Assembly (NCBI GenBank): GCA_021018995.1
Contig: CM037590.1
Span: 72,945,597 to 73,009,596 of the forward strand
Direction of reading: 5' to 3'
DNA: 64,000 nucleotides
DNA from: Chloranthus sessilifolius
Taxonomy: Eukaryota; Streptophyta; Magnoliopsida; Chloranthales; Chloranthaceae
Numbering within the stretch: the first letter of the stretch is position 1; the number at the start of each line of letters is the position of its first letter. A program made the translations under genes and the position numbers. The notes beneath the pieces are model-generated. The model searched no databases. It was not told the origin of the DNA and worked only from the letters and a program-made list of their open reading frames with translations. Below, in pieces: positions 9,823-53,879 of the stretch.

Positions 9823-10085
9823 TGTAATATCCCGAAAATTTATGTTGAATAGTGACCTCGGGATCCGTGCTCGATTGGTCATAGGTTTGACCAAGTGGGA
9901 GTCCACTAGTTGACTCGAGAGTGATGAACGAATATGATGTGAATATGATGTAAGAAAGAGGAGTGTAGTGTAAATCTGGAGTCGCATACACCTATCTTGG
10001 GTGTATGTGCTCAACACATGGACAAGGGGTGTATAAGGGTTTAAAGAACCCTAACTTCATTGTTTTGAGTTGTTGAAGAGAATTA

Positions 10086-10087
<2 letters not shown>

Positions 10088-10124
<37 letters not shown>
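10088..10124. repeat. (AG)n microsatellite
   Basis: A run of about 18 AG dinucleotides lies in the purine-rich leader part of solo LTR L4. Confidence 0.9.
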
Positions 10125-10126
<2 letters not shown>

Positions 10127-10425
10127 AAAGAGAGTTGTTGAGCAAGGAGTGAATGCAAGCCAAGGAAGGATTCGAGTATTTAAGGCCGAATTCAATGCGA
10201 AGGATTCCTTACAGCCAAAGCTGGAACCCTAGCCATTCCAACCTTGAGATCTAATCAAATTGAGATTCGATTGAGGTAAAGTTATTGTGAATTAAATGCA
10301 TAGATCATAGAGGTTTAATTGTAGTCAAAATTTCTTAAAATCATAGGATAAAGGCTTAGAAAAAGAAAGAAAAATTTGTTGAGAAGGATTTGGAAGATCA
10401 GCCCGAAAGGGGGTTGAGTCTGGCA

Positions 10426-10875
10426 AAATCGATTAATCGATTTGGGAAGTCGATTAATCGATTTGGTCTGAAAAGTTGAAAAGTCAAAGGACCCTGAAAT
10501 CGATTAATCGAACTGAGTTTCGATTAATCGATTTAGTATCGATTAATCGACTGAGAAGCTCTAGTGGCTGGAGAAATGAGACCTGGTGAAATCGACTAAT
10601 CGAATTAGAATTTCGATTAATCGATTTTAGATTTCGATTAATCGATTTGGGATCGATTAATCGATTTTGGAATCTCGGTTACTTGAATTGAGAATCGATA
10701 TGTGTAAGTTGAGACTTTCGATTAATCGATTTGAGATCGATTAATCGATTGAAGATTTCGATTAATCGATTTTGGGAATCGATTAATCGATTTGAATTTC
10801 GATTAATTGATTTTGGAAATCGATTAATCGAATCAGGTTCGATTAATCGAATTTGGAGATCGATTAATCGACTGA
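10426..10875. repeat. TCGATTAATCGA palindrome array in L4
   Basis: About 15 exact TCGATTAATCGA palindromes plus a few one-base variants occur in 450 bp with irregular 15-40 bp spacing. The array starts about 600 bp from the LTR start. The word is unrelated to CGCTCGAGCG of T1 and T2, but the array is in the equivalent place. Confidence 0.95.
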
Positions 10876-12370
10876 GATTGTTTTAGTTGACTTCTTAATT
10901 TGACTTTGAGATTCAGGGAGGGTCTTGGACCTTCTTTGTTACATCTTTAGTGATGAGTTGCGTGTGTTATGTTGTACCATAGGTGGTACGTGTGAGCATG
11001 AGCACAAGGAGCCGCGTGGGACCTTGATGCTTGGAAATTCAAAGACTTAAGGAAGGGAGCACCTTGAACATGTACTTTAATTTGCAAGAGCATGTATGTT
11101 GTGATATGTAATTTAAATCGGAAATTGTTTTAGTTAAGTAAAGTTTTGTGAAAAGGGTGTGTGTGTGACACCAATAGTGTAACTAAGAATAAGACATCCC
11201 CAGGGGATGAGAAAGTAACAAGATAGCAAAATGATAAGAGTAATTGGATACATTTTAGGGATGTAGACAAGATTGAGTAACATTTGATAAGGCCTAACTG
11301 ATATAAGATAGCACACTTACACGGTGAACAACTATATGTAAAGCACCTATTATTTTTGTTATTTGAGGCTTGACTAGGATACCCCACCGACGTGGCGAGA
11401 TACCCACGACTGACGCGGCAGGATATTCGTGACCGATACGGCGGTGAAACAGTAAGCCAGTACGGAGGTTTATCAGTATGCAGTAAGCACATCCCAGGGA
11501 TGTTGAGATATGAATGAACTCCGTCGCCGATTCTCAGGGAAGAGGGGCTTGGCTAGTTTTGTATTCCCAGGGAATACGTATAACAATTATCTATTTAGAC
11601 GACGATGAAGGGTATCTCATCGGGGCTCGATGCTATATTGCTCGGGGATTACTTAAGTTGAAGATTTAAGTTTTGCTTTAGGCCTTTTCAATGTCATTCA
11701 TGACCCAGTAAAAGAGATGTGAAAACTGTAAACTGTCATTCAAAGCAAATGTACATTACCATCTTTTCAAACTATTTTCTCAGTAATTGCATAGATCCAG
11801 CATGCTTAAAATATCATGGAATATATGTGAGGTTTTAACTTATATGTTCATAGTGTCTGTTCCCTATTGAGCTAGGATGTAGCTCACCCTTTAGACTATA
11901 CGTCGCAGGTCTAGTACTAGCAGCAGCGGAGGTTGCGGGTGATGTGGATCCTGGTGAGTCGGATCACACGCCCTTAGATGAGTTGGAGCCACCTCCAGAG
12001 GACTTCTTCTAGAGGACTCTGCTGTGCATTTTGAGAGGGTTGTTTTGTGAGATTTTTGGTACGGCTTGATATGTCAAGCCTTCTTTTCTGTTTAAACAAT
12101 ATAATTATATTGAGATAATTCCTTTGGGTGAACCATCTGGGATGATTAGTTATCATTGATGGTTCGGATCGATTCTCCACCATGCAGGGGTAGGAGGGTA
12201 AAACTGTCTTTTGAGAAATGTTTAAAGTCATGATGTTCCACATTTTATATCATTGTTCTTTTGTTTATAATTTGATTGATGTACCAATGTTTCGTGCTTA
12301 GCCAAGGGGCACGGTCTGGAGATCATGCTGATGGCACGATTTTCGGGGTGCCGAAATCCGGGCTGTCACA

Positions 12371-22853: not shown

Positions 22854-25018
22854 TGTCACAACCCAAATTTTTGAGATCTGTGCACGGCACATACTTACAC
22901 ATAGGTGTATGTGTTTCACAAGGAGACCAAAAACGACCCACATACGTTAAGTGTGTACGTGGGAAACACACTAGTATTATCCCAAAAATTTAGATATAAA
23001 AGTGAAAGAGATAGAGAAGAACCTTTACGTAACTCTATTCTAACCTAAATAGAGAGAAGGAGAATAAAGAGAGAAAGAAGAAAAGAGCCTAGTGGAGAAC
23101 TAGGGTTCATTGAGACTTAGGTCGAAAGAAGGGATCAGAGGAAATGACGGGAGAAAGAACCAGGGAGGCCGGATAGCCGAGTAGATATTCAATCATAAAT
23201 CGGACCTGTGCGTGATTCATCGTCAGAGGTACGTTAAAAAAAAACATGATAGATGCCTAGGAATGTTTTGAATAGTAGGAAGGATGTTGGCTGTATGTTA
23301 CTTTATATAAGATTAAGGTTAAATGAAGGATGGAAGCATGATCTCGATCTGATCGAGGGACAAAATCATTGTTCCTCGCTCGAGCGGTCTAAAGAGGCTC
23401 GCTCGAGCGAGGATGAACATAGAAAAATGTGGCTCTGGGCTCGCTCGAGCGGTCCCTAAAACTAAAGGGGAGTTCGCTCGAGCGAGGGTCCACAGTAAAA
23501 TTTGAGAGCTCGATTTAACCGCTCGAGCGATCTCGATTTGACCGCTCGAGCGAGGTCAAGAGACCGCTCGAGCGAGGTCAAGTGATCGCTCGAGCGAGGG
23601 CTAATGACCGCGCGAGTGAGGTTCGGTGATCACTCAAATATTGGTTTTCTAATATAAGAAACTCGGGTGTCTTACACCCCAAAGACCTTAGATCATCCTA
23701 AAGTAAAATTCTTTTAAATGTAGGTTGATGCATTATAACCCTCTAAGGACAAGCGTGCTTTGAGATTCGTCGAGGTAGGGAATTTTCTCGAACATGTGCA
23801 TTATTCTGTGAACTCATATGTGTAGTATAGTCCATTTAAATAGTGTATATTTCATAAATCCTCATGATAAGGGTGTGTGCGTGTGTTCCAATGTGGAAAA
23901 TCCTGAGGTCCCCAGGGGACGAAAGATAATGTGGTTAAATCAAAGAAAGGTGAAATAGAGGCATGGGGCATCCCAGGGATGCGTAAGAAAACAAACAGAG
24001 AAACAAAGATAATGTGATAAGGCCTAATGTAATATATTTAACACAATCACGGTGAATAACTATATGTAAAGCACATTAATACTTTTGTTATTTAAGGTTG
24101 ATTAGAATACCCCACCGACGTGGCGGGATACCCACGACTGACTCGGCAGGATATCCGTGACCGGTACGGCGGCCAATCCGTACAATTATAACATCCCAGG
24201 GATGTAGATTGAGAATAGACCCCGCCGCCTATGAGGAAGGGGCTCAAGGCGATATTCGTGGAATGCACATAACAACTGTCTAGTTAGACGACGATGGCGG
24301 GTATTCCATCGGGGCTCGATGCTATATTGCTCGAGGATTAATTAAGTTAAGATTTAAGTGATTAGGCCAAGTTCACAAACAAGTTTATAAAGAGATTAAA
24401 CAAAGCCATGATAAGTAGTGATTGGAACCATTGAGTTATTCCTGTTATCCAAATTGTTGTACATAAATGTTTTCTTGAAAATTTATGTTTTATTAAGTTA
24501 CTGACATATGTGTGAAGGATGATCTATATGTTCATTTGTTTTCCCTACGGAGCTAGGATGTAGCTCACCCCTTAGACTATACGTCACAGGTCAAGGACTA
24601 GCGGCGACAGGGACTTCAGGTGAAGTTAATCCAAGGGCATCGGAGTCCAGACTCTTGAAGAGACAGAACCTCCTCCTGAGGAATTCTTCTAGGAAACCCG
24701 CTGCATACCCTAAGAGTGAGTTGAGAGAGTACTGTGTATGACATGATATATCGAACCTCATTATTTGGAAGGTTTAAATACTGTCTCTTGGTAAACTATT
24801 TAAGAAGGATAATTGTCATTTAACTTTTGGGTATGTCCTTATGTCCATGAATTGGCATGGAACAGGGACAGCCTTGTAGGATCAACTATCCTATAACTTC
24901 TTATTTTTATTTAGAGTGTTGGCATGTCTTTGCAATTACTGATTTTGGTATATATATCGAGAGTTATGATATGAATTTAAGGCACGGACCTTGAAGGTCG
25001 GATGGCAGATTTTGGGAT
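22854..25018 (+). repeat. 5' LTR of T1 (3' end deleted)
   Basis: It starts TGTCACAACCC. The TATA box TATAAAA is at 22995-23001, with a purine-rich leader after it and a CGCTCGAGCG array at 23377-23622 (eight exact copies and one degenerate). Conserved LTR blocks lie at about 24110-24180 and 24545-24595. Compared with the 3' LTR, the last ~20 bases and the start of the PBS are missing: the sequence jumps from 'ttttgggat' to 'aagccttt'. Confidence 0.9.
23377..23622. repeat. CGCTCGAGCG array, T1 5' LTR
   Basis: Eight exact 10-bp palindromes CGCTCGAGCG plus one degenerate copy occur about 520-770 bp from the LTR start and downstream of the LTR TATA box. The same word forms the array before the T1 accessory ORF. 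Confidence 0.95.
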
Positions 25019-25105
25019 AAGCCTTTCTTTCCATAGTTACGACTATCATATCATCGTAATATAGGGACTTACGCTAACGAGATTATGAATTCTCATGCAG
25101 ACGTT

Positions 25106-26440
25106 ATGTTTCCTAGAGGAGAGAGGCCGACCGGTGGCCATGATAGGAATTCTGCATGAGAGATGGGTTCGTCTCACGCAAAGCAGTGCCGTTGGGAAAG
25201 CAGAGATTCCGAGGCGGTGGCAGGAGAAACCAAAATCAAGCGGAGGGCAAGATCTAGATAGGCAAGATCGAGATCAGAGGGAACAAGATAGGGTGAGAGA
25301 AAGAAATGAAGAAAGAGAAGAACGGAGAATGATGCACAATGGAGACCATGGCAACGCCATGGCACAACAACGGCGTCCTTAGCTGCATGCATTGTAACCA
25401 CAACGAACACCTACCCCTCCGGTGGGACTTACACCTCAGTGGCTTCAACATTCACGAGTTCAAGAATGAGACCTCCCAACTTTTCGTGATGATGCAGACC
25501 ACGATGGCCACGCTGGTTGGGAGAAATGGAGAAGGTGTTTAGTGTCTTGACATGCACGAGACGATGAGGCGTCTGGGCAGCATATACATGTTAGATGGAG
25601 AAGCCGGACCTTGGTGGAAATCGTTGTCATGGACGAGAGCACAAGAAACTCCAGATGTGCCGTGGACTTGGGTGAATTTGTAGAAGAATTCAATAAACAA
25701 TATTTTCCTAAGTTGTGAGAAATCGATGGAGACCCAATTTTACAACTAGCACAGGAAGAATGACCGTGAGAGAATATGGAGTGGAATTCATGAGATTGGC
25801 TCGCCTCCGGACTCACGTAATCTCGGGCGTGATGAAAGCGAAGAGGTTCCAACAAGGCTTAAGGTCGGACATACGAGGAGGGGTTGCCCTTCCAAATTTA
25901 AAACTTATGGAGAAGTAATGAGTAAGGCATTGGTGGTTGAGGAAGAAAATAATAACCGATACCGTCGGAGGAACATCAAGGCGTAGAAAGCATCGATCTA
26001 AAGCAGACGGGGTTATGAATCGGCATATAAGAAACCGAGGTTTATAACACCAAATCGTAAAATGCTCCAACAGTTATGGGAGAGTCCACAACAACCGACT
26101 CATCAAAATTATCCGTTCTTGGCATCGGGGAGATCGATGAGGTATCAAGGTCCTACTTTTTCGGCGAGGCTACAACTCCACAAGTTTTTGAGAGTCACTA
26201 ATTCATTTCCAAGAGAAACTTGTGCAAAATGTGGCAAGTCCCACAAAACAACCGAATGAAAGGTGGAATGCGAGGTCTTCAAGTGTGGCAAGATAGGCCA
26301 CATGATTAGAGATTGCCCCGAGACAGTCAAAGAAAAACGGCTCCAACTTCCATGCCACAACCTATTCAATCTCGAAAGCTTATTCGAGGAGAGCCTCGCA
26401 GATTCGCCCAAGAAGCGGGGAGTGTACGATGTTATCCAAG
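25106..26440 (+). pseudogene. gag: T1 gag (broken)
   Basis: The start is ATG 25106 by alignment with T2 (MFPRG…). Recognisable parts are a Gln/Arg-rich segment (25200-25340), GEAGPWWKS-like capsid residues near 25590, MTVREYGVEF (about 25759) and KAKRFQQGLRSDIRGG (about 25836). A CCHC zinc knuckle, FKCGKIGHMIRDCP (about 26278-26320), follows a CAKCGKSHKT repeat. Gag packages element RNA in cytoplasmic particles. Numerous single-base indels and a stop between the two Cys clusters break the frame. Its last codons …DVIQ abut the splice donor at 26441. Confidence 0.88.
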
Positions 26441-26601
26441 GTGAGGTCTCCTTTAAAATAAAGAATTTCGTTTGCAATACAACTCTAGATAATGAATGAA
26501 TTTTCCATTAGGATAAATATCTATATAAGCATTATTAAACTCAAGAGTGAAAATTTTTATATTAAGTATATGTTATGTATGCGTATATGCATGCATTGTA
26601 G
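26441..26601 (+). other. Putative gag-pol intron, T1
   Basis: The 161-bp segment runs from CCAAG|GTGAGG to CATTGTAG|GTATT. Joining its ends restores the reading …DVIQ-G-(T/I)L(Q/I)IYE… into protease. Read through, Gag would end 18 codons after the junction. Length, position and phase match the T2 (161 bp) and T3 (160 bp) segments. Confidence 0.8.
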
Positions 26602-29600
26602 GTATTCTGATTTATGAGAAAGGGTGCTACGTAGCACATGGCGTGGATCTTGATAGACCGAGGTCTACCCACTCTTTCATCACCTAGATTTGCAAAAGGA
26701 TGAAGATTATTTAGGAAGCCGGACTTTGTGTTATCGGTCCATCCCAACAGAGAATTAGTGCACACGAGTTAGTCGCAAATCGGTAGTAGTAAGCATTCGG
26801 GATCACGCGGTCCACGAATTGAACGCAAATTTAATATGGTTGGACATGCAAGGATTGACGTAATCCTTGGCATGGATTAATCCCAACATTGCACTGTGAT
26901 GGTGCAAGGATAAAGTTGTTGTTTTCCGTCCTAACACGAGAAGATCGTTTCGATTTCAAGGGGAGAGGTCGACTCAGGTACCACTCATATCTGCAGTAAG
27001 AGTAAAATGTTTAATCAGGAAAGGGTGTAGTGGTTATTTAGCATTTTTGTAGGAAGATAAAGAAGAAAAGAATATTATCTCCATATAGCTGCGAGAATTC
27101 CCGAGATGTATTTCGGAAGAATTGCGGGATTACCTCCGAAAGGGAGGTAGAATTTGCGATCGACTTAGCACCAGGAACGGAACCTGTTTCAAAAGCACCT
27201 TATAGAATGGCCCCTGCAGAGTTGAAAGAATTGAAAGAACAACTGCAAGAGCTCATGGACAAGGGATTCATACGACCAAGCGTGTCTCCATGGGGAGCAC
27301 CAGTGTTGTTCGTGAAAAAGAAAGATGGGTCGATGCGGTTGTGCATCGACTACAGAATAAAGTCACGGTGAAGAATCGATACCGTTGCCAAGGATAGATG
27401 ACTTATTCGACCAATTGCGGTGCAAAACATTTTTCCAAGATCGACGACCTAAGATCGGGTTATCATCGATTAAGAGTCGTACGAGGACATTGACGGCTTT
27501 TAGAACACGGTATGGACACTATGAATTTTTAGTAATGCCATTCGGGTTGACGAATGCACCAGCGTCGTTTATGGACTTGATGAATCGAGTGTTTAAACCT
27601 CACTTAGACTCCTGCGTGGTAGTGTTTGTGGATGACATCTTAATCTACTCAAAATTGAAAGCGGAACATGAAGAACACTTACGTGTCGCTCTACGAACCT
27701 TGCGTGAACACCAACTGTACACCAAGCTCAGCAAATGTGAGTTTTGGCTAGAAAAGGTTAGCTTTCTGGGACATGTCATCTCCAAGCATGGTGTCACTGT
27801 AGATCCCGCTAAGATCGAGGCAGTAGTGAACTGGGAACAACCAAAAACGTCGGATGACATCCAAGTTTCCTGACCGGGTGGCGGTTATTATCGGACGCCA
27901 GAGAAGGATTTTCAAAAATATCAGGACCTCTTACGAGACTTACAAGAAAAGACTCAAGATTTGAGTGGATTGAGGCGTGTGAGAAGAGTTTTCAAGAACT
28001 CAAGAAGAGGCTCACCTCAGCTCCAGTGTTAGCCATTCCATCAGGCAGTGGAGGATTCGCAGTTTATAGTGATGCTTCGTATAACGGGTTGGGTTGTGTA
28101 CTAAATCAATATAAAAGGGTGATAGCTTACGGCTCCAGACAGTTGAAAGAGCACGAAAGGAACTACCCAACACACGATCTAGAGCTAGCAGCAGTCATAT
28201 TCGCATTAAAGATATGGCGACATTATCTATACGGAGAAACATTTGAAATTTTCACTGACCACAAAAGCCTCAGATACCTGTTTAACGAAGGCCCGAATAT
28301 GAGGCAGCGTAGGTGGATGGAATTCCTCAAAGATTACGATTGTTCTATACAGTACCATCCAGGCAAAGCTAACGTAGTGGCCGACGCCTTGAGTCGAAAG
28401 AGTTCGGCCCAACTGGCTAGACTAATTTTGGGTATACATCGATGGAAGTTGTTGGAAGATCTAGCGTTGTGTGGCGCAGACATACAACCACAAGCCACAG
28501 GAGCCTTCTTAGCCAACATATCAGTGAAGCCAGTGATATTCGAGCACATACGAGAACTACAGATGAAAGATCCGATTCTAACAAGGATACATCAAAATGT
28601 AATTGAAGGTACTACCTCTGAATTTTCAATTAAAGAAGACGGTTCCTTAACATTCAAGGGGCGGCTTTGCATTCCGGACAATGCGGAGTTGCGACGAACG
28701 ATTCTTGATGAATCCCACAGGTCAAGCTATGCGATTCATCCGGGAAGCACAAAGATGTATCAGGACCTGAAAAAGAACTACTGGTGGAGAGGTTTGAAAC
28801 AAGATGTGGCAGAGTACGTGTCACGATGTTTGACGTGTCAACAAGTGAAAATCGATCATAGACACCCCGCAAGCCTATTACAGCCTTTACCCATACCGGA
28901 ATGGAAATGGGAATCTATCTCAATGGATTTCATAGTCGGATTACCACGAACTGCAAGGAGGCATAATGCCATTTGGGTAGTGGTTGATCGATTAACTAAG
29001 TCGGCACATTTCTTGCCGTACAACACGATGTACACAGCGGGAAGATTAGCAGAACTTTACATGAAGGAGATCGTTCGGCTACATGGGATTCCAATTAGCA
29101 TTGTTTCAGACCGAGACCCATTATATACATCAAAGTTTTGGAGGAAATTCCAAGAAGGAATGGGAACTAAGTTGGATTTTAGTACGGCGTTTCACCCACA
29201 AACAGACGGACAGACTGAGAGGGTCAACCAAGTCATTGAAGACATGCTTAGGGCATGTATGCTATAATTGCAAGGATCATGGGATCAACATCTACCATTG
29301 ATTGAGTTCGCTTATAATAATAGTTTTCGCAGCATTGGGATGGCACCGTATGAAGCCTTGTACGGAAGACGATGTAAGTCGCCAATCAATTGGGAGGAAA
29401 CTGGGGAGAAATTCATTTTGGGACCCGAGCTACTTGAAGATAACGCTGCCATTGTCCGCATGATCAGGGAAAGACTAAAAGCGGCTCAGAGCAGACAGAA
29501 AAGTTATGCTGACATCAAGCGGACTAGTGTAGACTTTAAAGTGGGTGGACATGTGTTCGTGAAAGTATCACCGATGAAGGGAGTGATGAGATTTGGGAAG

Positions 29601-29969
29601 AGAGGGAAACTAAGTCCCCGCTATCTTGGACCGTTTGAAGTTTTGGGTCGAGTGGGAGAAGTAGCCTACCGCATTGGTTTGCCACCATTGTTTGATCAGG
29701 TACACAACGTGTTCCACGTGTCGATGCTTAGAAAATATCTCAATGACCCTGATCACGTGCTGAGTGGCCAATCATTCGAAATGCATGAAGATATGACCAT
29801 GATTGAAGAACCCGTAGAAATTTTAGATCAAAAGGAACAGGTGTTGCGAACAAAAGTGATTCCATTAGTGCTTGTCCGATGGAAGAACCATCCGGCCGAA
29901 GAGGCAACATGGGAACGTGAGGCGGATGTTAGAGAACAATATCCTAAATTGTTCGAACTTGCCAACTGA
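26602..29969 (+). pseudogene. pol: T1 pol: PR-RT-RNase H-IN-chromodomain (broken)
   Basis: The protease region (26602-26880) is badly shifted. RT starts near 27135 ([33 protein letters not shown]) and has the catalytic box FVDDILIYS (about 27627). RNase H lies at about 28026-28400 (YSDAS, TDHKSL, ADALSRK). Integrase has the zinc finger H…H…CLTCQQVK (about 28830), the catalytic D in MDFIV (28921), D in SDRDP (29106) and E in QTERVNQ (29215). The chromodomain (about 29815-29960: EILDQKEQVLR, WKNH, EEATWE) ends at 29969. From 28026 to 29969 a single frame is open except for one TAA (29265-29267), but upstream frameshifts break RT. A chromodomain would direct integration to marked chromatin. Confidence 0.92.
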
Positions 29970-30149
29970 ATGCTTCATTCGTTTGAGAATATGTAATTTC
30001 GGGTACTATGAAGGCTATGTATGTTTTCTTTTGATATGTTGATTTCAAACAATGTTTGAGAAATTTTTTCGTCGAACTCTAAATTGATGAAACTAGTGAT
30101 GTATTGAAACTAAACGAGCAAGAAAGTACCAGAGAAATGTTTCTGGTCT
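29970..30149 (+). other. T1 spacer after pol
   Basis: This is an AT-rich untranslated stretch between the pol stop and the palindrome array, colinear with 53478-53659 of T2. No gene is seen. Confidence 0.6.
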
Positions 30150-30350
30150 CGCTCGAGCGACCACTTATGACCGCTCGAGCGAGACCACATAAAATCATAC
30201 TTCCTCTCGCTCGAGCGATAACAAATCCTCGCTCGAGCGAGGTATGTAGACCGCTCGAGCGATGACTTATAACCGCTCGAGCGAGGTAACAGTATATGAC
30301 ATTATGATTTCTGTTCTCGCTCGAGCGAGGACTAATGACCGCTCGAGCGA
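30150..30350. promoter_or_regulatory. CGCTCGAGCG array upstream of the T1 accessory ORF
   Basis: Eight exact CGCTCGAGCG palindromes occur in 200 bp, ending 9 bp before a canonical TATA box. The word is identical to the LTR array word of T1 and T2. Spacing is irregular (12-45 bp) and the flanks differ from those in the LTR, so this is not a simple LTR fragment. Confidence 0.9.
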
Positions 30351-30358
30351 GGCGGAAC

Positions 30359-30366
30359 TATAAATA
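30359..30366 (+). promoter_or_regulatory. TATA box (TATAAATA) of the T1 accessory ORF
   Basis: TATAAATA follows the last palindrome directly and precedes a leader of about 200 bp and the ATG at 30568. A TATATATATA sequence is at the same place in T2 (53869) and TATTTAA in T3 (60083). Transcription from it is inferred. Confidence 0.65.
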
Positions 30367-30567
30367 TGGCAGGCCAGAGCGTCTGTTCATCTTCAAGCGA
30401 GAGAAAAGAGAGAGACGATCGGGGGAAGGGTTAGGGCAGCCGTTTTCAACCATTTTTCTTCCGATTTCAAACGGATTTGAGCAATCCGATCCGTTAAGAC
30501 GATTCTCCTAGGTAAACTCTACCTATTTCCTAAAGTTTTTCCTTCATTTTTAGCATTATTATACTAG

Positions 30568-31801
30568 ATGGCCTCAAGCCCGAACCCCCAACCAAAGAAA
30601 CGGATGGCGACTCGGTCGCCACCGGCGCGCAACAAGGCGCCACAAACCTCTCAACAATCATCAAACCCACCCTCTACTCCAATCACACTGGATGATTGGT
30701 GGGGATCAAAAATTTTTGAAGCCGAGTGGGAAATACACCCTGCTTGTTTGGAGATCCGGCGTCCACCCAGTGGACATCGGACTTCATCACCAACAATCAG
30801 CTCAAGACCCTGCTTACGCCGTTCGGGGATCGATACTACCAGAGGCTAGTGAAATTATTTTACCAGACCCTACAATTGAGCGTTGATGAGGATGCCATAC
30901 TCATTACCATCGATGGTAATGAGTTAATTTTCAGATGTGCCGACATTTCCTCAATCATGAAATGTCCTCACATCTACACCCCTAGCCCACACATCCTACC
31001 ACCTTTATCTGGGAACGTAGATTTCCCAACGATAATCTCCGACATCGGACCGCCGGACAATCCATCACCCGATCACAATTACCACATGTGGCTTTTAGAA
31101 ATTATCTTCAAAAAGAATTTGCACCCAACCGGCCATGACCAAGAACGCCGAGGTGCGTTTTTGCGAGCACTACATACCGCACTTCACAATAGGTAGATCA
31201 ACGCCCCTATGGTTGTCATAAAAGGCATGGCGATGCCTACAAAAGGAATGTAAGGTGTGTCCTCCACCGATCAACCGATTACCTTATGTTCGGTTGATTT
31301 CACTCTTGATTCGCGAAATGGGAAGGGAGGATTTAGGATTCGGAGGACGAGTTGTTCCTCATCGACAACGCCGCGTCCCCATACCTTGCCCCAAGATTGG
31401 AGCGAAACCTTAAGAGCCTCCAAACCAGCGTACGACAAAAGAGAGACCAGGTCTCCGATCACCACCCATCAAGCAAGGGACCGACTACTTCCTCTACCTC
31501 AATACCGCAGCCCATACCCACTACTGACACGGGCATGATGCGGGAGATCCTTCAGCAAGGGAGGGAGATCAGGTTGCACCAGAGGTTCCAGGAGGCGCTA
31601 CTCATAGACCTCATGGGCTGCATACCATAGCCTTACATGCAGCGCGTAGGTGCCATGAGGGATGCTATTTTTGGAGCATCTAGCTCCGGCCCGGCTACGA
31701 GGAGCACCACAGTGGGTACCGCAGCCGTCACGGTGGACGATGGCGATGACGACGACGACTATGACGACGACGACGACTATTATGAAGAGGAGGAGGATTA
31801 G
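30568..31801 (+). pseudogene. T1 accessory ORF (broken)
   Basis: It starts at ATG 30568 (MASSPNPQPKKRMA, a basic, NLS-like N-terminus) and ends near the acidic tail before 31801. The core motifs are spread over frames: DDWWGSK, then LLTPFGDRYYQRLVKLFYQTL (30810-30870), IFRCADISSIMKCPHIY (30930-30980), HPTGHDQERRGAFLRALH (31122-31175), LQTSVRQKRD, MMREILQQGREIR, and a tail of alternating Asp/Glu (31735-31798). Frameshifts near 30750 and 31190-31330 and stops break it. It is colinear with the T2 ORF at 54076-55353. It has no signal peptide or membrane segment, so it is not an env-like protein. Function is unknown. Confidence 0.85.
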
Positions 31802-32097
31802 ATGATAGTGAATATTTGAAACTTTGCATGTAATATTTTGAAAACTTGGATGTGGATGTTAAACTTAGATATGGGTAGATGATAAATATGTGTGGAATGT
31901 AATATCGATAATATCTTGGTTAATTATTTTTGTTTTTGTCGTATGGAAATGGTGGGCATAACCAACATTGGTTGCTGCAAAATGGGGCAAAATAGTTAAA
32001 TTTCTGCTTTGTTATGAGAGTCGGATGACAAAAGTGGTACCTGGTTAAGAAAATAATATCGATTTTCGAGGGCGAAAATCTTATAAGTTGGGGTGAT
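31802..32097 (+). other. T1 3' untranslated region with PPT-like tract
   Basis: This is non-coding AT-rich sequence ending 'tcgagggcgaaaatc…aagttggggtgat' just before the 3' LTR. The 'cgaggacgaaaat' and G-rich tract is the usual Tekay pre-LTR signature and would serve as the polypurine primer. Confidence 0.75.
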
Positions 32098-34285
32098 TGT
32101 CACAACCCAGATTTTTGAGATCTGTGCACGGCACATACTTACACATAGGTGTATGTGTTTCACAAGGAGACCAAAAACGACCCACATACGTTAAGTGTGT
32201 ACGTGGGAAACACACTAGTATTATCCCAAAAATTTAGATATAAAAGTGAAAGAGATAGAGAAGAACCTTTACGTAGCTCTATTCTAACCTAAATAGAGAG
32301 AAGGGGAATAAAGAGAGAGAAGAAAAGAGCCTAGTGGAGAACTAGGGTTCATTGAGACTTAGGTTGAAAGAAGGGATCAGAGGAAATGACGGGAGAAAGA
32401 ACCAGGGAGGCCGGATAGCCGAGTAGATATTCAATCATAAATCGGACCTGTGCGTGATTCATCGTCAGAGGTACGTTAAAAAAAAAACATGATAGATGCC
32501 TAGGAATGTTTTGAATAGTAGGAAGGATGTTGGCTGTATGTTACTTTATATAAGATTAAGGTTAAATGAAGGATGGAAGCATGATCTCGATCTGATCGAG
32601 GGACAAAATCATTGTTCCTTGCTCGAGCGGTCTAAAGAGGCTCGCTCGAGCGAGGATGAACATAGAAAAATGTGGCTCTGGGCTCGCTCGAGCGGTCCCT
32701 AAAACTAAAGGGGAGCTCGCTCGAGCGAGGGTCCACAGTAAAATTCGAGAGCTCGATTTAACCGCTCGAGCGATCTCGATTTGACCGCTCGAGCGAGGTC
32801 AAGAGACCGCTCGAGCGAGGTCAAGTGACCGCCCGAGCGAGGGCTAATGACCCATGGCGAGGTCCGGTGATCACTCAAATATTAGTTTTCTAATATAAGA
32901 AACTCGGGTGTCTTACACCCCAAAGACCTTAGATCATCCTAAAGTAAAATTCTTTTAAATGTAGGTTGATGCATTATAACCCTCTAAGGACAAGCGTGCT
33001 TTGAGATTCGTCGAGGTAGGGAATTTTCTCGAACATGTGCATTATTCTGTGAACTCATATGTGTAGTATAGTCCATTTAAATAGTGTATATTTCATAAAT
33101 CCTCATGATAAGGGTGTGTGCGTGTGTTCCAATGTGGAAAATCCTGAGGTTCCCAGGGGACGAAAGATAATGTGGTTAAATCAAAGAAAGGTGAAATAGA
33201 GGCATGGGGCATCCCAGGGATGCGTAAGAAAACAAACAGAGAAACAAAGATAATGTGATAAGGCCTAATGTAATATATTTAACACAATCACGGTGAATAA
33301 CTATATGTAAAGCACATTGATACTTTTGTTATTTAAGGTTGATTAGAATACCCCACCGACGTGGCGGGATACCCACGACTGACTCGGCAGGATATCCGTG
33401 ACCGGTACGGCGGCCAATCCGTACAATTATAACATCCCAGGGATGTAGATTGAGAATAGACCCCGCCGCCTATGAGGAAGGGGCTCAGCAAGATTCCTGT
33501 GGGAATGCACATAACAACTGTCTAGTTAGACGACGATGGCGGGTATTCCATCGGGGCTCGATGCTATATTGCTCGAGGATTAATTAAGTTAAGATTTAAG
33601 TGATTAGGCCAAGTTCACAAACAAGTTTATAAAGAGATTAAACAAAGCCATGATAAGTAGTGATTGGAACCATTGAGTTATTCCTGTTATCCAAATTGTT
33701 GTACATAAATGTTTTCTTGAAAATTTATGTTTTATTAAGTTACTGACACATGTGTGAAGGATGATCTATATGTTCATTTGTTTTCCCTACGGAGCTAGGA
33801 TGTAGCTCACCCCTTAGACTATACGTCACAGGTCAAGGACTAGCGGCGACAGGGACTTCAGGTGAAGTTAATCCAAGGGCATCGGAGTCCGCATACCTGA
33901 AGAGATGTAACCTCCTCCTGAGGAATTCTTCTAGGAAACTCGCTGCATACCCTAAGAGTGAGTTGAGAGAGTACTGTGTATGACATGATATATCGAACCT
34001 CATTATTTGGAAGGTTTAAATACTGTCTCTTGGTAAACTATTTAAGAAGGATAATTGTCATTTAACTTTTTGGTATGTCCTTATGTCCATGAATTGGCAT
34101 GGAACAGGGACAGCCTTGTAGGATCAACTATCCTATAACTTCTTATTTTTATTTAGAGTGTTGGCATATGCTGCAATTACAGTTTGGCTGTATATATCGG
34201 CGAGTTATGATATGAATTTAAGGCACGGCCTTGAAGGTCGTGCAGATGGCACGGATTTTGGGATGCCGAAATTCGGGCTGTCACA
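32098..34285 (+). repeat. 3' LTR of T1
   Basis: It runs from TGTCACAACCC to GGGCTGTCACA, 2188 bp, almost identical to the 5' copy (a few substitutions and small indels, for example near 32825-32870 and 33487). The palindrome array at 32620-32868 has six exact copies and at least two mutated ones, against eight exact in the 5' LTR. Confidence 0.95.
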
Positions 34286-40500: not shown

Positions 40501-42812
40501 TATAATATCCCCAAATTTTGGGCAAACACGTAAGTCAAACAGATGCGTCTGTGAATGTGGTGTATTTGGCTCACAAGGGAACCTATGAAAATAAGTACAC
40601 ACTTTGGTGTGTATGTATCTCTCACTAAAAGAATAAGTGGATATGTGTAACACACAATTTTTGTGTTTGTGATTTAAATGAAAGCAAAGTGATTGCTTGG
40701 GTGTGAGGGACAGATAACCCACGTGTGATACCCATTTGTGGGTTTACTAACTTGTTTGTTTTGAAAGAAAAGGAAGAGGGGTTTGAAGAGAGGAGAAGGT
40801 TTTCTTTGAATCCATATGTTTTGAATCATTCGATCGTAGTGAGATTTGTGCTAGGTGTGTGTGAAGGATCGCCGTATGATTGTGTCTGTATAGTGGTGAT
40901 CGTGGAGCTTATAGAAGATGGAAAGGGTTTTGAAACCCATTTACTTGCAAGGAGGAAGACGATTTGATCTTCGAGTGAATCGTTGAGTTAAATGTGAGAA
41001 ATTGATACTCAAAGAATGTAAATTTTGTTAATGGAATGTTTTATAAGATGTGTAAGAAGTGTGAAAGAAATTAGAGAACAAAATGAGAAGATCGAGTTGA
41101 GAAAAAACTCATATCTAAACAAACTCTGGTTCTCGCGCGCATGAGCTTCAGAGCTCGCTCGAGTGAGAGGCCTTTAGAAGGCTTATGTAGCATTTAAGGC
41201 TCTGAGTCTCGCTTGTGCGAGGACTTAAGTGAACAAAAGGTTCGCTTGCATGAGGGCTTGCATGCCTAGCTTCAATAGGCTAAAATCCAATCGGTCGACC
41301 GAGTTTCAGATGAACTTTTGAGCTCGCGGGCTCGAGCTCTAGAGCTCGCTCGCGCGAGAAACAAAGTCAAGTTTATTTGGATTATTTTTGTATGAATTCT
41401 TTGAAATTATGTATCTTAGGCTTTCTTAGGTTTTTACTAAGGGGGTATTTGGACAATTTGAATGTAGGACTAAAGCATTGAGCTTATGTGTGAGTTCTCA
41501 AGAGAGCTATCTGTGGAATACGATAAGCGTGACTTGAGGTAGGAGAAACTTACGATCATTTTAATTTATTGTGCTCCGTATAAGTTAAGTAATGTAATGT
41601 GATAAACCATAAGAGTTTTGTGGAAAACAAGCATGTGATATACTATTGTTTCAAACAAGTTTTGTAATGTGATAAGTCATGATGTGAAATTCTTTAATTC
41701 AAACAAGTTTTGAATAGAATATATATGATGTGAAAGAAGCAAATGTGATGTGTTAAATGTGAAATGTGAGAATTCCGAAAATATATAAGAATATTAGCTT
41801 TTCCAAAAATAGTATAATGTATCACTCAACACGGTGTGAAACTATAAGTTAGAACCTGCACATTCATTTAAGGTTTAGTATAATGAATCCATTGTGCTCC
41901 GGTATGATGGGATATTCATTCATTGTGCTCCGGTACGGCAGAATATCCGTTCATTTCTCTTACCGGCCAACGGTAATATTATTTGGCACAAGCATCCCTC
42001 CTAACGCAGGGGCTTGGGCTTACGTGACAATGGTTCATTGAACGACAATGGTAGGATTCCCATCGGTATTATATGCGGCTTCTAATATTATATTTGCCTA
42101 GAAAGATATTTAAGTTAATGCTTTAAGTTATGACAAATGTTTTAAAACAAAATATGTGATTCAAGCATGTGTGTGATTAAATTTTGCATATGGAATTCAA
42201 TTGAGATAAATGTGGAATGTGCCTATGAAAATCAGTTAAGTGACATTATGCTTGAGATATGATCTTGAATGCTACTAATTTTTTTTCCTATTGAGCTTCA
42301 ATGTTAGCTCACCCTTCGACTATACGTCATAGGTGAGGACTTAGAGAAAGATCTGGATCTTGAAAGTGATCCTGAATACGAACCTAAGGAGGTGATTGAG
42401 CCCCTACCGGAGTTCTTTCCCAAGTAGACCGTGTGGGTGTTTGAGCAGTAAAGAGTGCATTTTGTTTGGCTTGGTACGTCCAGTCATTTTTGAGTTATAC
42501 TAGTGATGTAATATAATTGTTTTGAATATTCTTTTTATGAACCATTGGTTGGTGATAGTTGTCTATCACTGATGGTTCTTTTCGGTTCTTTCCTTCATGC
42601 ATTTGGCATGGAATTTAGAACCATTATTTTGAGTAAGTTATATTTAGAAATGTAATTTCTTTTGAAGTGAAGAATGAATCTATCTGTCTAAAGGAGATAT
42701 CTATGTGAGATCTACTTATGTGGATGTGCCAAGTGTTCGTGTAAGAGTGGGATCGCTCTAACGGGTGATCAGATGGCACTGGTTTCGGTGTACAAAAATC
42801 CAGGCTTTCACA
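40501..42812 (+). repeat. 5' LTR of T3
   Basis: 2312 bp. It starts TATAATATCCCC (the G of the usual TG is mutated; the 3' copy at 62490 has TGTAATATCCCC) and ends CAGGCTTTCACA. The GCGCGC/CGAGCT motif array lies at 41131-41360. Conserved blocks are 'attgtgctccggtacggca' near 41920 and 'gttagctcacccttcgactatacgtca' near 42303. Confidence 0.92.
41131..41360. repeat. CG-rich palindromic motif array, T3 5' LTR
   Basis: Words of the type CTCGCGCGC…GAGCTTC and AGAGCTCGCTCG(C/A)G(C/T)GAG occur as pairs of half-palindromes, about eight in all, some decayed. The 3' LTR has the matching set at 63117-63348, and the internal set lies at 59849-60077. Confidence 0.75.
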
Positions 42813-46244: not shown

Positions 46245-48431
46245 TGTCACAACCTCAGATTTTTGAGATGAGTGCACGTCATGCATTACATATAGGTATA
46301 TGTGTTTCACAAGGAGACCAAAACGAACTAAAGACACTATGTGTGTACGTGGGAAACACACTAGTATTTCCCTAACTTATATGTATAAAAGTGAAAGAGA
46401 GGAGAGAAGAACCCTTGCGTAACTCTATTCTAACCTAAATAGAGAGAAGGAGAGTATAGAGAGAAAGAAGAGAAGAGCCTAGTAGAGAACTAGGGTTTCG
46501 TTGGGACTTAAGTCGGCAAAAGAGATTAGAGAAAAAGGCTGGGGGAAGAACCTTGGAGGCCTGTTAGCCTAGTAGAATTTCGAATCTTAAATCAAACTTG
46601 CGCGAGACTCATCGTCAGAGGTATGTTAAAGACATGATAGATGCTTAGGCATGTTTTAAATAATAGGAAGAATGTTGGTTGAATGTTTTTTTATGAGGTT
46701 AAGGTTTGAATGAAGGGAGAAAGTATGTTCTCGATCTGATCGAGGAGCAAAAAATCATCGTTCCTCGCTCGAGCGGTCTAAAGGGCTCGCTCGAGCGAGG
46801 ATGAATAGAAAAAAATATATATAACTCTGGGCTCGCTCGAGCGGTCCCCAAAACTAAAGGGAAGCTCGCTCGAGCGAGGGTCCCCAGAAATACTTCGATG
46901 GCTCGATTTAACCGCTCGAGCGAGGTCAGGTGACCGCTCGAGCGAGGTCAAGGGACCGCTCGAGCGAGGTCAAGTGACCGCTCGAGCGAGGTCTGGTGAC
47001 CACTCAGTTCTGGGAATTTTCGAATACAAGAAACCTGGGGTTGTACACCCCAATGGTTCTAGTGATCTTTCTAAGCCTATACTAAATTGAAATGTAGGTT
47101 TGACGCATGGTCATGAAGTATAAACCTCTACGAGAAGGGGTGCTTTGAAATTTGTCGAGGTAGGGAATATTCTTGAAACATGTGCATTATTCCATGAAAT
47201 TCATATGCGGAGTCTAATCTATTTAAATAGTCAAATATTGCATGATCCTCATGATAAGGGTGTGTGAGTGAGTTTACAACGTGAAAGTCGTGAGGTCCCC
47301 AGGGGACGAAAAAATCATATAGTTCATACAAAGAAGGGTGCGACGGAAATATGGGGCATCCCAGGGATGCAGATGAAAACTAACAGAGAAACGTAAGTAA
47401 TGTGATAAGGCCTGATGTAATATAATTAGCACAATCACGGTGAATAACTATATGTAGAGCACATTTGATATTTCTATTATTTAAGGTTTGATTAGAATAC
47501 CCCACCGACGTATGGATACCCACTGACTTCGGCAGGATATCCGTGAGCTGATGCAATGCAGATCCAAGACTTCCATAGTACATCCCAGGGATGTAGATCT
47601 AAAAATAGACCCCACCACCTATGAGGAAGGGGCTTGGGCAGTATCCCCAGGGGATACAGATAACAACTGTCTAGTTAGACGACGATGGTGGGTATTCCAT
47701 CGGGGCTCGATGCTATATTACTCGAGGACTACTTAAGTTAAGATTTAAGTGATTAGGCCAAATTCACAACTAAACTAATAAGGAGATTAAACAAAACCAT
47801 GCTAAGTAACGATCAAAATCATTGGTTTATTTCCAGTTACTCAAATTGTTGTCCATAAGTGATTACTCGATAATTCTATGCTTGTTAAACTGCTGACATA
47901 TGTGTGAAGGTCAATCCATATGTTCTTTTTGTTTCCCTACGGAGCTAGGATGTAGCTCACCCCCTTAGACTATACGTCGCAGGTCCAGGACTAGCGGCAG
48001 CAAAGACTTCTGGAGAAGCTGGTCCAAGGGTTTCGGATTTCGTGCCCACAAAAGAGTCAGGACCTTCTCCTGAGGAATTCTTCTAGGAAACCCGCTGCAT
48101 ACTTTGAGAGTGAGTTGAGAGTATTATGTATGGCTTGGTATATCAAGCCTCTTTATTTTGAATGTTTTAATTACCGTTTCTTGACAGAACGTATAGGATG
48201 AACTGTTATCACTAAACATTTGGGTAAGTTCTTATGTCCATGAATTGGCATGGGACAAGGACTGCCTTGCGATACCTTGATTATTTTTGAGTTTTTATTT
48301 AGAGTAGTTACGTGTGCCTCAATTACAGTTTTGGATTGTATATATCAATGTTTTGTAAGGAACCCGGGGCACGGCCTTGAAGGTCGTGCTGATGGCACAG
48401 ATTTCGGGGTTCTGAAATTCGGGCTGTCATA
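46245..48431 (+). repeat. 5' LTR of T2
   Basis: It starts TGTCACAACCTC. TATA box TATAAAA is at 46384-46390, the palindrome array at 46766-46988 (eight exact CGCTCGAGCG), and the conserved 'gagctaggatgtagctcacccc' block at about 47943. It ends TGTCATA (C to T in the terminal CACA). It is 2187 bp; the 47505-47575 stretch is scrambled by small indels relative to the 3' copy. Confidence 0.93.
46766..46988. repeat. CGCTCGAGCG array, T2 5' LTR
   Basis: Eight exact palindromes. The 3' LTR has eight exact plus one mutated copy (56213-56458), because one extra 'ccgctcgagcgacctcgattta' unit is present or was lost. Confidence 0.95.
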
Positions 48432-48433
48432 GT

Positions 48434-48446
48434 TGGTATCAAAGCC
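48434..48446 (+). other. Primer binding site of T2 (tRNA-iMet type)
   Basis: TGGTATCAAAGCC lies two bases after the LTR, one mismatch from the usual TGGTATCAGAGCC. Confidence 0.9.
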
Positions 48447-48528
48447 TTTTCTTTCTAGTTCTGGTTATCATATCGTCAGAATATAGGGACTTCTGCTAAC
48501 GAGACTATGGATTCTCATGCAGACCGTT

Positions 48529-49926
48529 ATGTTTCCTAGAGGGAGAGGCCGACCCAGGGGTGGTCATGATAGGAATTTACGCAGTACAGATGGGTTCGTC
48601 TCACCTACAAACAGAGTGCCATTGGGAAACAGGGAGATTCCCGAGGGCAGTGGCCAGGGAGGAAACCAAAATCAAGCAGAGGATCAAGATCTAGATCGAC
48701 AGGATCGAAATCAGAGGGAACAAGATAGGGTGAGAGAGAGAAATGAAGAAAGAGAAGAGCGTCAGAGGATGATGCACACAATGGAGACCATGGCAACTGC
48801 CATGGCACAGCAAGCAGCGTCCTTGGCAGCGCATACAGTACCAGAACCACAACGAACACCTACCCCTCCAGTGGGACTTACACCCCCAGTGGCTTCAGCA
48901 TTCACCGAGTTCAGAAGGATGAGACCTCTAAATTTTTCAGGATAGGCAGACACAATGGCAACCGAAAACTGGCTGGGTGAAATGGAAAAGGTGTTTAGCG
49001 TACTGACATGCACAGAGGATGAGAGCGTCCGTTGGGCGGCATATATGTTAGATGGAGAAGCTGGACCTTGGTGGAAATCCGTTTCGCGAACAAGAGCATA
49101 AGAAACTCCAGATATGCCGTGGACTTGGGACGAATTCGTAGAAGAATTCAATAAGCAATATTTTCCTGAAGTTGTGAGGAATCAGATGGAGACCCAATTT
49201 TTACAACTAGCGCAAGGAAGGATGACCGTGAGAGAGTATGGAGTGGAATTCATGAGACTGGCTCGCTTCGCCCCAGACTACGTAGTTTCAGACGTAATAA
49301 AAGCGAAGAGGTTCCAACAGGGCTTAAGGTCGGACATCCGAGGAGGGGTTGCGCCCTTCCAGCTGAAAACCTATGGAGAAGTAATGAGTAAGGCATTAGT
49401 AGTCGAAGAAGAAAACAATAACCGATACCGTCAGAGGGAACAACAAGGAAGAGAAAGCATTGATCCAAGCAGGACGGGGAGCTATGAATCGGTACATAAG
49501 AAACCGAGGTTTGTAGCACCGAATCAGAGACAATCGTTCCAGACAGGGTATGGGAGAGCTGCACAACAAGCTACTCATCAAAGTTTTCCGTTGCTAGCAT
49601 CAGGGAGACCGATGAGGTATCAAGGTCCTGCTATTTCCAGCAGGGCTACAACTACACAAGGTTTTTTGAGAGCTGCTACTCCAACACCAGGGGAAACTTG
49701 TGCCAAGTGTGGCAAGTCCCACAAAACAGCGGATTGTAGGTAGGGAATGTGAGGCTGTTTCAAATGCGGCAAGATAGGCCACATGATTAGAGATTGCCCT
49801 GAGACAGTTAAAGAAAAGGCGGCCCCAACTTCCATGACACAACCTATTCAATCTCGAAAGCCTGTTGTTCGAGGGAGAGCCCTCTGTGATTACCAGAAGG
49901 TGGGAGTGTACACGACATCATCCAAG
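48529..49926 (+). pseudogene. gag: T2 gag (nearly intact, a few stops)
   Basis: It starts at ATG 48529 (MFPRGRGRPRGGHDRN, Arg/Gly-rich). Next come a Gln/Arg/Glu-rich helical segment (48650-48775), RPLNFSG then a TAG at about 48943, WLGEMEKVF, GEAGPWWKS (about 49057), a TAA at 49099, WDEFVEEFNKQYFP (49126), MTVREYGVEF (49224), KAKRFQQGLRSD (49300) and CAKCGKSHKTADC (49699). A TAG at 49741 precedes CFKCGKIGHMIRDCP (about 49755-49798). The capsid plus nucleocapsid layout is typical for Tekay elements. A frameshift just before the donor must be allowed for to read …DIIQ. Gag assembles the particle. Confidence 0.92.
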
Positions 49927-50087
49927 GTGAGATTTCTTTTAAATAAAGAATTTCGGTTGCAATACAATTCTAGATAGAGAATGTGCTTTCATTAGGAAAA
50001 ATATATATATAACCGTTGTTGAGCATTTGAATTTTTTTTTTTTTAAAAATAAAGTATATGTTATGTACGTATATGTATGCATTATAG
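49927..50087 (+). other. Putative gag-pol intron, T2
   Basis: 161 bp, CCAAG|GTGAG to GCATTATAG|GTACG, with a T-rich stretch at 50028-50045. Joining gives …DIIQ-G-TLQIYEKG… and leads into protease. The unspliced frame stops about seven codons in (…GEISFK stop). It has the same length as the T1 segment. Confidence 0.85.
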
Positions 50088-53477: not shown

Positions 53478-53659
53478 ATAGTCTTATCCAAATTAAGAAT
53501 ATGTGATTACGAGTAGCATGAAATCTAGTTATTTTTGAAAGATAAAATTTCTATATATATATGTTGACTCCAACCAATGTTTGAACCACCCTTTTTGTTG
53601 AATCTTTGAGATTTGAAATAAAAAATGAGCGAAAGAATACCAGAAAAATGTCCTGGTCT
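53478..53659 (+). other. T2 spacer after pol
   Basis: This non-coding stretch before the palindrome array is colinear with T1 29970-30149. No gene is seen. Confidence 0.6.
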
Positions 53660-53862
53660 CGCTCGCGCGACCACTTATGTTCGCTCGAGCGAGCCACATA
53701 AAATAACAATTTCCTCTCGCTCGAGCGATAACTATTCCTCGCTCGAGCGAGGCTTTGTAACCGCTCGAGCGAGGCATTTTGACCGCTCGAGCGAGGCCAT
53801 AGCATATAATATAAATCTTCCTGGTCTCGCTCGAGCGAGAACTAATGACCGCTCGAGCGAGG
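53660..53862. promoter_or_regulatory. CGCTCGAGCG array upstream of the T2 accessory ORF
   Basis: Seven exact CGCTCGAGCG copies and one CGCTCGCGCG variant occur in 200 bp, with the same order and spacing as T1 30150-30350. The array ends 7 bp before a TATA-like box. Confidence 0.9.
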
Positions 53863-53868
53863 AGGAAC

Positions 53869-53879
53869 TATATATATAT
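53869..53879 (+). promoter_or_regulatory. TATA-like box of the T2 accessory ORF
   Basis: TATATATATAT follows the last palindrome. A leader of about 200 bp leads to ATG 54076. The leader's 'ttcatcttcaagcga' segment is conserved with T1. Confidence 0.6.

What the first reader, a model, noticed from the sequence alone, without database searches (positions are those of the whole stretch)
30150..30366. Matched palindrome arrays in the LTR and in front of an accessory ORF
In T1, eight exact CGCTCGAGCG palindromes stand right before a TATA box and the accessory ORF. The same word forms the array inside both LTRs (23377-23622, 32620-32868). T2 repeats this (53660-53862; 46766-46988; 56213-56458). T3, a diverged family, has a different word type, yet again the same type in the LTRs (41131-41360, 63117-63348) and before the ORF (59849-60077). 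The pairing within an element, with the word changing between families, looks like coevolving binding sites for one factor. The simplest candidate is the accessory protein itself, in the way the VANC proteins of VANDAL transposons bind clustered short motifs in their own DNA to counter silencing. A host factor or structural role is the alternative.
Basis: partly seen in the sequence, partly recalled or inferred. Interest (0 to 1): 0.92.

Follow-up and report, generated by a model that had tools for sequence, protein, structure and literature searches.

The report
Family-specific palindrome arrays in plant retrotransposons
Plant jumping genes in this stretch carry evenly spaced rows of one short mirror-symmetric DNA word, both in their ends and in front of an extra gene, and related families use different words, which suggests landing sites for a protein that changes together with them.

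Summary
The arrays are real. CGCTCGAGCG occurs 45 times, all inside the six T1/T2 arrays named; 30 shuffles gave none. In T1/T2 a TATA box starts 10 bp after the pre-ORF array. Words are conserved between T1 and T2 far above their surroundings (pre-ORF 79/80 bases vs 386/472; CpGs 24/24 vs 6/13), but not between the two LTRs of one element, so selection acts on the replicating lineage. LTR-derived profiles assign 20 of 21 pre-ORF sites to their own family, although T3's word is a loose relative of T1/T2's. New here: two solo LTRs, T4 and T5, carry arrays at a similar LTR position with clearly different words (ATCGATTAATCGAT, ATCGTTCGAACGAT). All share a CG-N6-CG palindromic frame, mostly 19-23 bp apart (41 of 61 intervals; simulation mean 12). 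The accessory ORF evolves as a protein gene (dN/dS 0.31) and weakly resembles Pfam PF20167. Most likely the arrays bind a dimeric element-encoded regulator, probably the accessory protein; anti-silencing versus plain activation is open. Binding is untested, no comparator genome could be searched, and the structure prediction failed.

The parts
22854..34285 (+). T1, full-length chromodomain-type Ty3/gypsy element, 5-bp target duplication GGAAC
23377..23622 (+). T1 5' LTR array, 8 exact CGCTCGAGCG (LTR position about 524-743)
30150..30349 (+). T1 pre-ORF array, 8 exact words, spacing 22,36,22,22,22,44,22
30359..30367 (+). TATA box TATAAATAT, starting 10 bp after the last word
30568..31811 (+). 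T1 accessory ORF, broken (frame changes and stops); basic start, acidic tail
32620..32868 (+). T1 3' LTR array, 6 exact words plus variants
46245..57906 (+). T2, full-length element nested in T3, target duplication ACGAT
46766..46988 (+). T2 5' LTR array, 8 exact words
53660..53862 (+). T2 pre-ORF array, 7 exact words plus 1 variant, same spacing as T1
53869..53879 (+). TATA box of T2 accessory gene
54076..55353 (+). T2 accessory ORF; first piece 54076-54870 (265 aa, PF20167-like), in-frame TGA, second piece 54883-55350 with acidic tail
56213..56458 (+). T2 3' LTR array, 8 exact words plus 1 variant (one unit more than the 5' LTR)
41131..41360 (+). T3 5' LTR array, 6 loose sites (CTCGCKCG..GCGAG type)
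59848..60076 (+). T3 pre-ORF array, 5 loose sites; TATTTAA at 60083
60283..61605 (+). T3 accessory ORF, several stops; homologous to T2's (42% over 264 aa)
63117..63348 (+). T3 3' LTR array, 6 loose sites
9823..12370 (+). T4 solo LTR, target duplication TAAGT
10428..10872 (+). T4 array: 17 sites of ATCGATTAATCGAT type, mostly 19-21 bp apart
95..2550 (-). T5 solo LTR, target duplication ATAAT (plus strand)
1626..1847 (-). T5 array: 9 sites of ATCGTTCGAACGAT type, mostly 20-21 bp apart, several departing from the consensus

Best explanation
The arrays are cis-regulatory binding sites for a sequence-specific, dimeric DNA-binding protein encoded by the element itself, most probably the accessory PF20167-like protein. 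Two subunits would read a 14-bp palindrome NTCG-NNN|NNN-CGAN: the outer CG is constant, and the inner three bases of each half are family-specific. Sites about two helical turns apart would let dimers sit side by side and fill the array cooperatively. In front of the accessory gene the array abuts the TATA box, which gives autoregulation (probably positive feedback). In the LTR it would keep the LTR promoter active or unmethylated. Families change word and protein together, so each element activates only its own kin. Shown: word identity, constraint, spacing, word switching, coding constraint on the ORF. Inferred: binding, dimerisation, identity of the binder, activation or anti-silencing, place of the LTR promoter.
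For: Words and their CpGs are conserved between T1 and T2 well above context: pre-ORF 79/80 vs 386/472 bases, CpG 24/24 vs 6/13; 5' LTR 80/80 vs 1689/1994, CpG 24/24 vs 29/52. Within one element's LTR pair they are not: 78/80 vs 2042/2074; 79/80 vs 2061/2099. Masking on one element's words alone gives a like result. Pre-ORF site spacing is identical in T1 and T2 despite diverged spacers. LTR profiles assign 15 of 16 T1/T2 pre-ORF sites and 5 of 5 T3 pre-ORF sites to their own family, while masked LTR and pre-ORF spacers are only weakly alike (26, 8 and 13 of 300 shuffles reach the score). Word switching at a similar LTR position in T4 and T5 within one genome, with a constant CG-N6-CG frame and 19-23 bp spacing (41 of 61 intervals; simulation mean 12, maximum 25 in 20,000). 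Accessory ORF dN/dS 0.308 over 384 codons T1/T2; its dN is about 2.9 times that of pol (0.189 vs 0.065). It has a basic start and an acidic tail (22 of the last 40 residues in T2).
Against: No binding data. No recognisable DNA-binding domain: PF20167 matched only T2, below the curated cut-off (36 vs 45 bits). The fold could not be predicted (pLDDT 33). Only two families have both array sites in view, and their words overlap. T1 and T2 share ancestry and the intervals include tandem duplicates, so counts are not independent. Two of the three LTR/pre-ORF spacer comparisons are nominally below 5% (8 and 13 of 300), and by eye a stretch such as CTAATGACC stands beside words in both T1's LTR and pre-ORF arrays, so an old copy of part of one array into the other is not excluded. 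gag, integrase or a host protein could be the binder. All four arrays folded are stronger RNA folds than every shuffle. The LTR transcription start is not mapped: TATAA-type words lie on both sides of the LTR array in several families, so I cannot say whether the geometry matches the accessory promoter.
Confidence: 0.55

Rival explanations
1. Host transcription factor sites: the LTR and the internal promoter recruited the same host activator, with cooperative spacing.
For: Regularly spaced sites next to a promoter are typical of enhancers; conservation between lineages fits. [quoted passage not shown]
Against: One host genome holds four word types in related LTRs at a similar position; a stable host factor would not require the word to switch, nor LTR and pre-ORF to follow each other. 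No host factor for these words is known to me (recall, not searched).
Confidence: 0.2
2. Structural role of the transcript: self-complementary words pair with each other in RNA (dimerisation, packaging, or hairpins that feed small RNAs, as discussed for maize Sireviruses). Any word works as long as all copies match.
For: RNA folding z-scores -11.9 (T1 pre-ORF), -3.4 (T3 pre-ORF), -13.0 (T4), -3.7 (T3 3' LTR), with no shuffle folding as well in any of the four. The rival explains word switching and LTR/pre-ORF matching without a protein. Sirevirus palindrome clusters are associated with small RNAs (PMC10760457, passages).
Against: Strong folding is a mechanical result of repeating any palindrome; T3's sites are imperfect palindromes and fold much less. 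The constant CG-N6-CG frame and the spacing are not needed for RNA pairing. Pairing tolerates G-U changes, yet words hardly changed between T1 and T2.
Confidence: 0.15
3. Neutral tandem duplication: arrays grow by slippage and words look alike because copies are recent.
For: T2's 3' LTR has one unit more than its 5' LTR, and the last units of the LTR array are near-identical.
Against: Spacers diverged while words stayed; CpGs in words are kept 24/24 (5' LTR) and 24/24 (pre-ORF) while 23 of 52 and 7 of 13 outside are lost; LTR and pre-ORF arrays share words but spacers only weakly.
Confidence: 0.05

Closest known systems
VANC anti-silencing proteins of VANDAL transposons (PMC5735166, PMC10398659; passages seen)
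   Same: Works like: element-encoded accessory gene; short motif arrays in non-coding parts (upstream regions, introns); motif differs between related families; arrays change by tandem repetition; accessory protein more variable than the enzyme.
   Different: VANDALs are Mutator-like DNA transposons (recalled); VANC carries DUF1985 and DUF287; the VANC21 motif YAGTATTAY is not palindromic and lies in one orientation. Here: LTR retrotransposon, PF20167-like protein, palindromic CG-framed sites about 20-22 bp apart, array abutting the TATA box.
Sirevirus LTR palindromes of maize (Bousios et al. 2016, as described in PMC10760457, passages; the original was not seen)
   Same: Clusters of palindromes in LTRs of plant retrotransposons, thought to define the cis-regulatory region.
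   Different: Copia superfamily; the Copia consensus CACCGGACNNNGTCCGGTG has a 3-base loop; discussed as RNA structure and small-RNA target; no paired array before an accessory gene in the passages seen.
Athila 3' accessory ORF (PF20167, related to Athila ORF1 PF03078; PMC11728184, passages)
   Same: Sense ORF with PF20167 similarity at the 3' side of the element; nuclear localisation predicted for the sunflower Athila protein.
   Different: The element here has a chromodomain integrase; the Tekay accessory ORF in that paper is a 5' ORF without known domain; no arrays in the passages seen ('palindrom' occurs 0 times in its main text).
Retand and Grande accessory genes (PMC11963269, PMC7264820; passages)
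   Same: Accessory ORFs between pol and 3' LTR; tandem repeats there in about half of the Retand elements studied; own promoter in Grande; suggested DNA-binding or regulatory proteins.
   Different: Those ORFs are mainly antisense and of other families (TRP28 in Retand); no shared LTR/pre-ORF word in the passages seen.

Membership tests
VANC/VANDAL system | Carried by a Mutator-like DNA transposon | tested here: not met
   T1-T3 have LTRs and RNase H/integrase relatives; T1 and T2 have 5-bp target duplications
VANC/VANDAL system | Accessory protein with DUF1985 | tested here: not met
   Pfam scans: 4 accessory pieces (T2, T3 x2, T1) at E up to 10 and T2's and T3's later parts at E up to 1 gave no DUF1985; HMMER's filters drop most matches above 0.1, and a distant relation is not excluded
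VANC/VANDAL system | Arrays of a short motif in non-coding parts of the element, differing between families | tested here: met
VANC/VANDAL system | Protein binds the motif | not testable with these tools
   needs EMSA, DAP-seq or ChIP-seq
VANC/VANDAL system | Loss of DNA methylation on its own family | not testable with these tools
   needs methylome data
Chromovirus (Ty3/gypsy) | RNase H before integrase, chromodomain after the integrase C-terminal domain | tested here: met
   SH3_Tf2-1 and Chromo in T1 and T2; RNase H then integrase in T1's 28026-29264
Tekay lineage of chromoviruses | Reverse transcriptase phylogeny | not tested
   no plant reference sequences on hand
PF20167 (Transposase_32) | Score above curated cut-off | tested here: not met
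   T2 piece 36 bits against 45, E 8e-9, profile positions 3-172 of 177; T1 and T3 pieces no match
Sirevirus LTR palindromes | Copia superfamily element | tested here: not met
   gypsy-type order and chromodomain

The most novel reading that the evidence does not exclude
A self-contained, fast-evolving cis/trans recognition code in an LTR retrotransposon: the PF20167-like protein is a dimeric DNA-binding anti-silencing or activating factor whose half-site changes family by family (CTC, C[T/G]C, ATT, TTC inside a constant CG frame). By extension, the related Athila 3' ORFs, long discussed as envelope-like, would be nuclear regulators with their own arrays.
Probability: 0.3. Interest if true: 0.9.

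Novelty: new variant of a known kind. Interest (0 to 1): 0.74.

Why it matters
It would extend the principle of family-specific, element-encoded anti-silencing from Mutator-like DNA transposons to LTR retrotransposons, the largest part of many plant genomes. It would also give a testable function to accessory ORFs whose function is unknown. The arrays name the sites to test and the words to swap, and the four word types in one 64-kb window make a ready natural experiment on how protein and site change together.

Tried and rejected
Protein homologues: none at E <= 0.01 among 455 candidates. Viral contigs by accessory protein and integrase, and prokaryote contigs by integrase: no relatives. A paired-word DNA pattern hit one viral contig (L001), which I did not read and take as chance. 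AlphaFold2 on the 265-aa T2 accessory piece with 5 partial relatives failed (mean pLDDT 33), so no fold search was made. PDB by profile: two matches at E 0.99 and 1.3, taken as chance. A weak Herpes_ORF32 match in T3's first piece (E 0.008, 24 residues, below cut-off) and a NOA36 match to the acidic tail are taken as chance. Helical phase: the resultant rises broadly to 11.5-11.75 bp with no peak at 10.5, so I claim spacing, not exact phase. A copy-paste origin of the pre-ORF array from the LTR was tested through spacers: weak similarity only, not excluded. My first dN/dS count used overlapping matches twice and gave 0.276 for the accessory ORF; one search counts each codon once and replaces it.

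Paper searches: among the papers listed (lists capped, titles and starts of abstracts seen) none describes paired palindrome arrays in LTR and before an accessory ORF. They cover open PMC papers only.

Full report
What is there. The window holds three chromodomain-type Ty3/gypsy elements with an accessory ORF between pol and the 3' LTR: T1 (22854-34285, target duplication GGAAC), T2 (46245-57906, ACGAT, nested in T3) and T3 (5' LTR from about 40503, 3' LTR from 62490 and cut by the window end). Integrase, SH3-like and chromo domains were found by Pfam in T1 and T2; T3's integrase region is homologous to T2's by tblastn. I did not test the Tekay label. The accessory ORFs of the three are homologous (tblastn E 2e-87 and 9e-65 from T2's first piece). 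T2's first piece matches Pfam PF20167 at E 8e-9, below the curated cut-off; the T1 and T3 pieces scanned do not match on their own.

The arrays. In the pre-ORF region the spacing is 22,36,22,22,22,44,22 in both T1 and T2, and the TATA box begins 10 bp after the end of the last word in both. T3's sites are looser: 6, 6 and 5 sites related to CTCGCKCGNGCGAG. The two LTRs of an element match because both are copied from one template; that match is no evidence.

Two more families. Counting 10-bp palindromes over the whole window showed CGATTAATCG (15 times) and CGTTCGAACG (3 times). They lie near where LTR alignments place the array: in T4, a solo LTR at 9823-12370 with duplication TAAGT, and T5, a solo LTR on the minus strand at 95-2550 with duplication ATAAT. 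Both align with the T1 and T2 LTRs over 737-1262 columns at 61-65% identity downstream of the array; the array regions themselves gave no alignment. Array positions in the LTR are about 524-743 (T1), 522-744 (T2), 627-853 (T3), 604-1048 (T4) and 704-925 (T5). So the eight LTRs of this kind identified in the window all carry an array, with four word types. All share a palindrome with CG-N6-CG, usually NTCG-N6-CGAN; the inner six bases differ (CTCGAG, CKCGNG, ATTAAT, TTCGAA). Neighbouring sites are mostly 19-23 bp apart: 41 of 61 intervals in eight arrays. The 3' LTR arrays of T1, T2 and T3 were left out as near-copies, and two weak calls (23501, 46894) were dropped; keeping them would give 41 of 63. 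Random placement gave a mean of 12 and a maximum of 25 in 20,000 runs. Intervals are not independent, since T1 and T2 are related and some units are tandem copies.

Constraint. Between T1 and T2, word bases are kept 79/80 (pre-ORF), 80/80 (5' LTRs) and 74/78 (3' LTRs) against 386/472, 1689/1994 and 1734/2056 outside. CpGs in words are kept 24/24, 24/24 and 18/18 against 6/13, 29/52 and 42/63. Masks from one element alone give T1 words to T2 79/80, 80/80 and 60/60, and T2 words to T1 70/70, 80/80 and 74/80. Between the two LTRs of one element, where copies decay freely, words are not favoured (78/80 vs 2042/2074; 79/80 vs 2061/2099). The constraint therefore belongs to the replicating lineage, not to the host's use of old copies. 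Choosing exact words biases these counts somewhat upward.

Pairing. Profiles built from LTR sites assign 15 of 16 T1/T2 pre-ORF sites and 5 of 5 T3 pre-ORF sites to their own family; the exception is a variant site in T2. With words masked, LTR and pre-ORF spacers are weakly alike (26, 8 and 13 of 300 single-base shuffles reach the score; two of three nominally under 5%), and by eye short pieces beside words recur (CTAATGACC in T1's LTR and pre-ORF arrays). This speaks against a recent copy of the whole array but does not exclude an old partial one. Since T1/T2 and T3 words overlap, this is modest support for coevolution. T4 and T5 show clear word change but no pairing, as they are solo LTRs.

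The accessory gene. T1/T2 dN/dS is 0.308 over 384 codons, against 0.164 for 824 pol codons; dN is 0.189 against 0.065. T2/T3 amino-acid identity is 44.6% over 379 codons against 72.2% over 769 for pol (each codon counted once, stops skipped, two pol pieces overlap by about 110 bp in different frames). So it evolves as a protein gene and changes faster than pol. It starts with a basic stretch and ends with an acidic tail (22 of the last 40 residues in T2). T1's and T3's copies are broken, T2's has one in-frame stop. AlphaFold2 failed (pLDDT 33).

Geometry. A TATAA[A/G] word lies at LTR position 140-142 in T1 and T2 and 210-214 in T4 and T5, upstream of the array; T3 has none there. But other TATAA[A/G] words lie nearer the array (T1 453, T3 538-540, T5 524) and behind it (T1 800 and 1533, T2 875, T3 1077 and later, T4 1480), so the LTR start is not known. 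A splice-donor-like AGGT sits between the first TATAA and the array in T1, T4 and T5 by the scan, and before the array in T2 and the T3 3' LTR by eye. If the first box is the promoter, the LTR array lies downstream of it, perhaps in an intron; VANC motif arrays also occur in introns and upstream regions (PMC5735166, passages). If a box behind the array is used, the LTR would resemble the accessory promoter.

Mechanism. The frame-plus-variable-core palindrome, the near-constant spacing, the conservation in replicating lineages and the switching of words between families of one genome fit sites for a dimeric protein that changes with the element. The accessory protein is the natural candidate: its gene carries the second array and it evolves fast. 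Whether it activates, represses or keeps methylation off is not decided. RNA structure remains a rival: the arrays fold with z-scores of -11.9, -3.4, -13.0 and -3.7, no shuffle folding as well, but this follows from repeating any palindrome, and the constant CG frame and spacing are left unexplained.

Limits. The genome search did not complete (11 attempts), and the collections searched held no plant relatives. All comparisons rest on eight LTRs and three accessory genes of one window.

Noticed in passing
95-2550 (-) and 9823-12370 (+): Two solo LTRs of related families with intact target duplications and their own palindrome words; taken up into the main finding.
   Followed up: yes
46245-57906 within about 40503-64000: T2 is inserted inside the pol region of T3 (nested elements, duplication ACGAT).
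   Followed up: yes
24985-25060: The end of T1's 5' LTR lacks the terminal bases seen in its 3' LTR, so its LTR end and primer site look damaged (by eye).
   Followed up: no
LTRs of T1, T2, T4, T5: TATAA-type word about 140-214 bp into the LTR and a splice-donor-like site before the array in several LTRs; the array may lie in a 5' intron. Other TATAA words lie behind the array.
   Followed up: partly
12792-14256 and 37036-38532 (also 18305-19687, inverted relative to 37135-38536): Another repeat family with 90% and 77% identical copies; not identified, and the palindrome count showed no array word there.
   Followed up: no
36058-36534: Tandem duplication of about 240 bp, 95% identical.
   Followed up: no
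54076-55353: A sense 3' accessory ORF with PF20167 similarity, reported for Athila in sunflower (PMC11728184), here in an element with a chromodomain integrase.
   Followed up: partly
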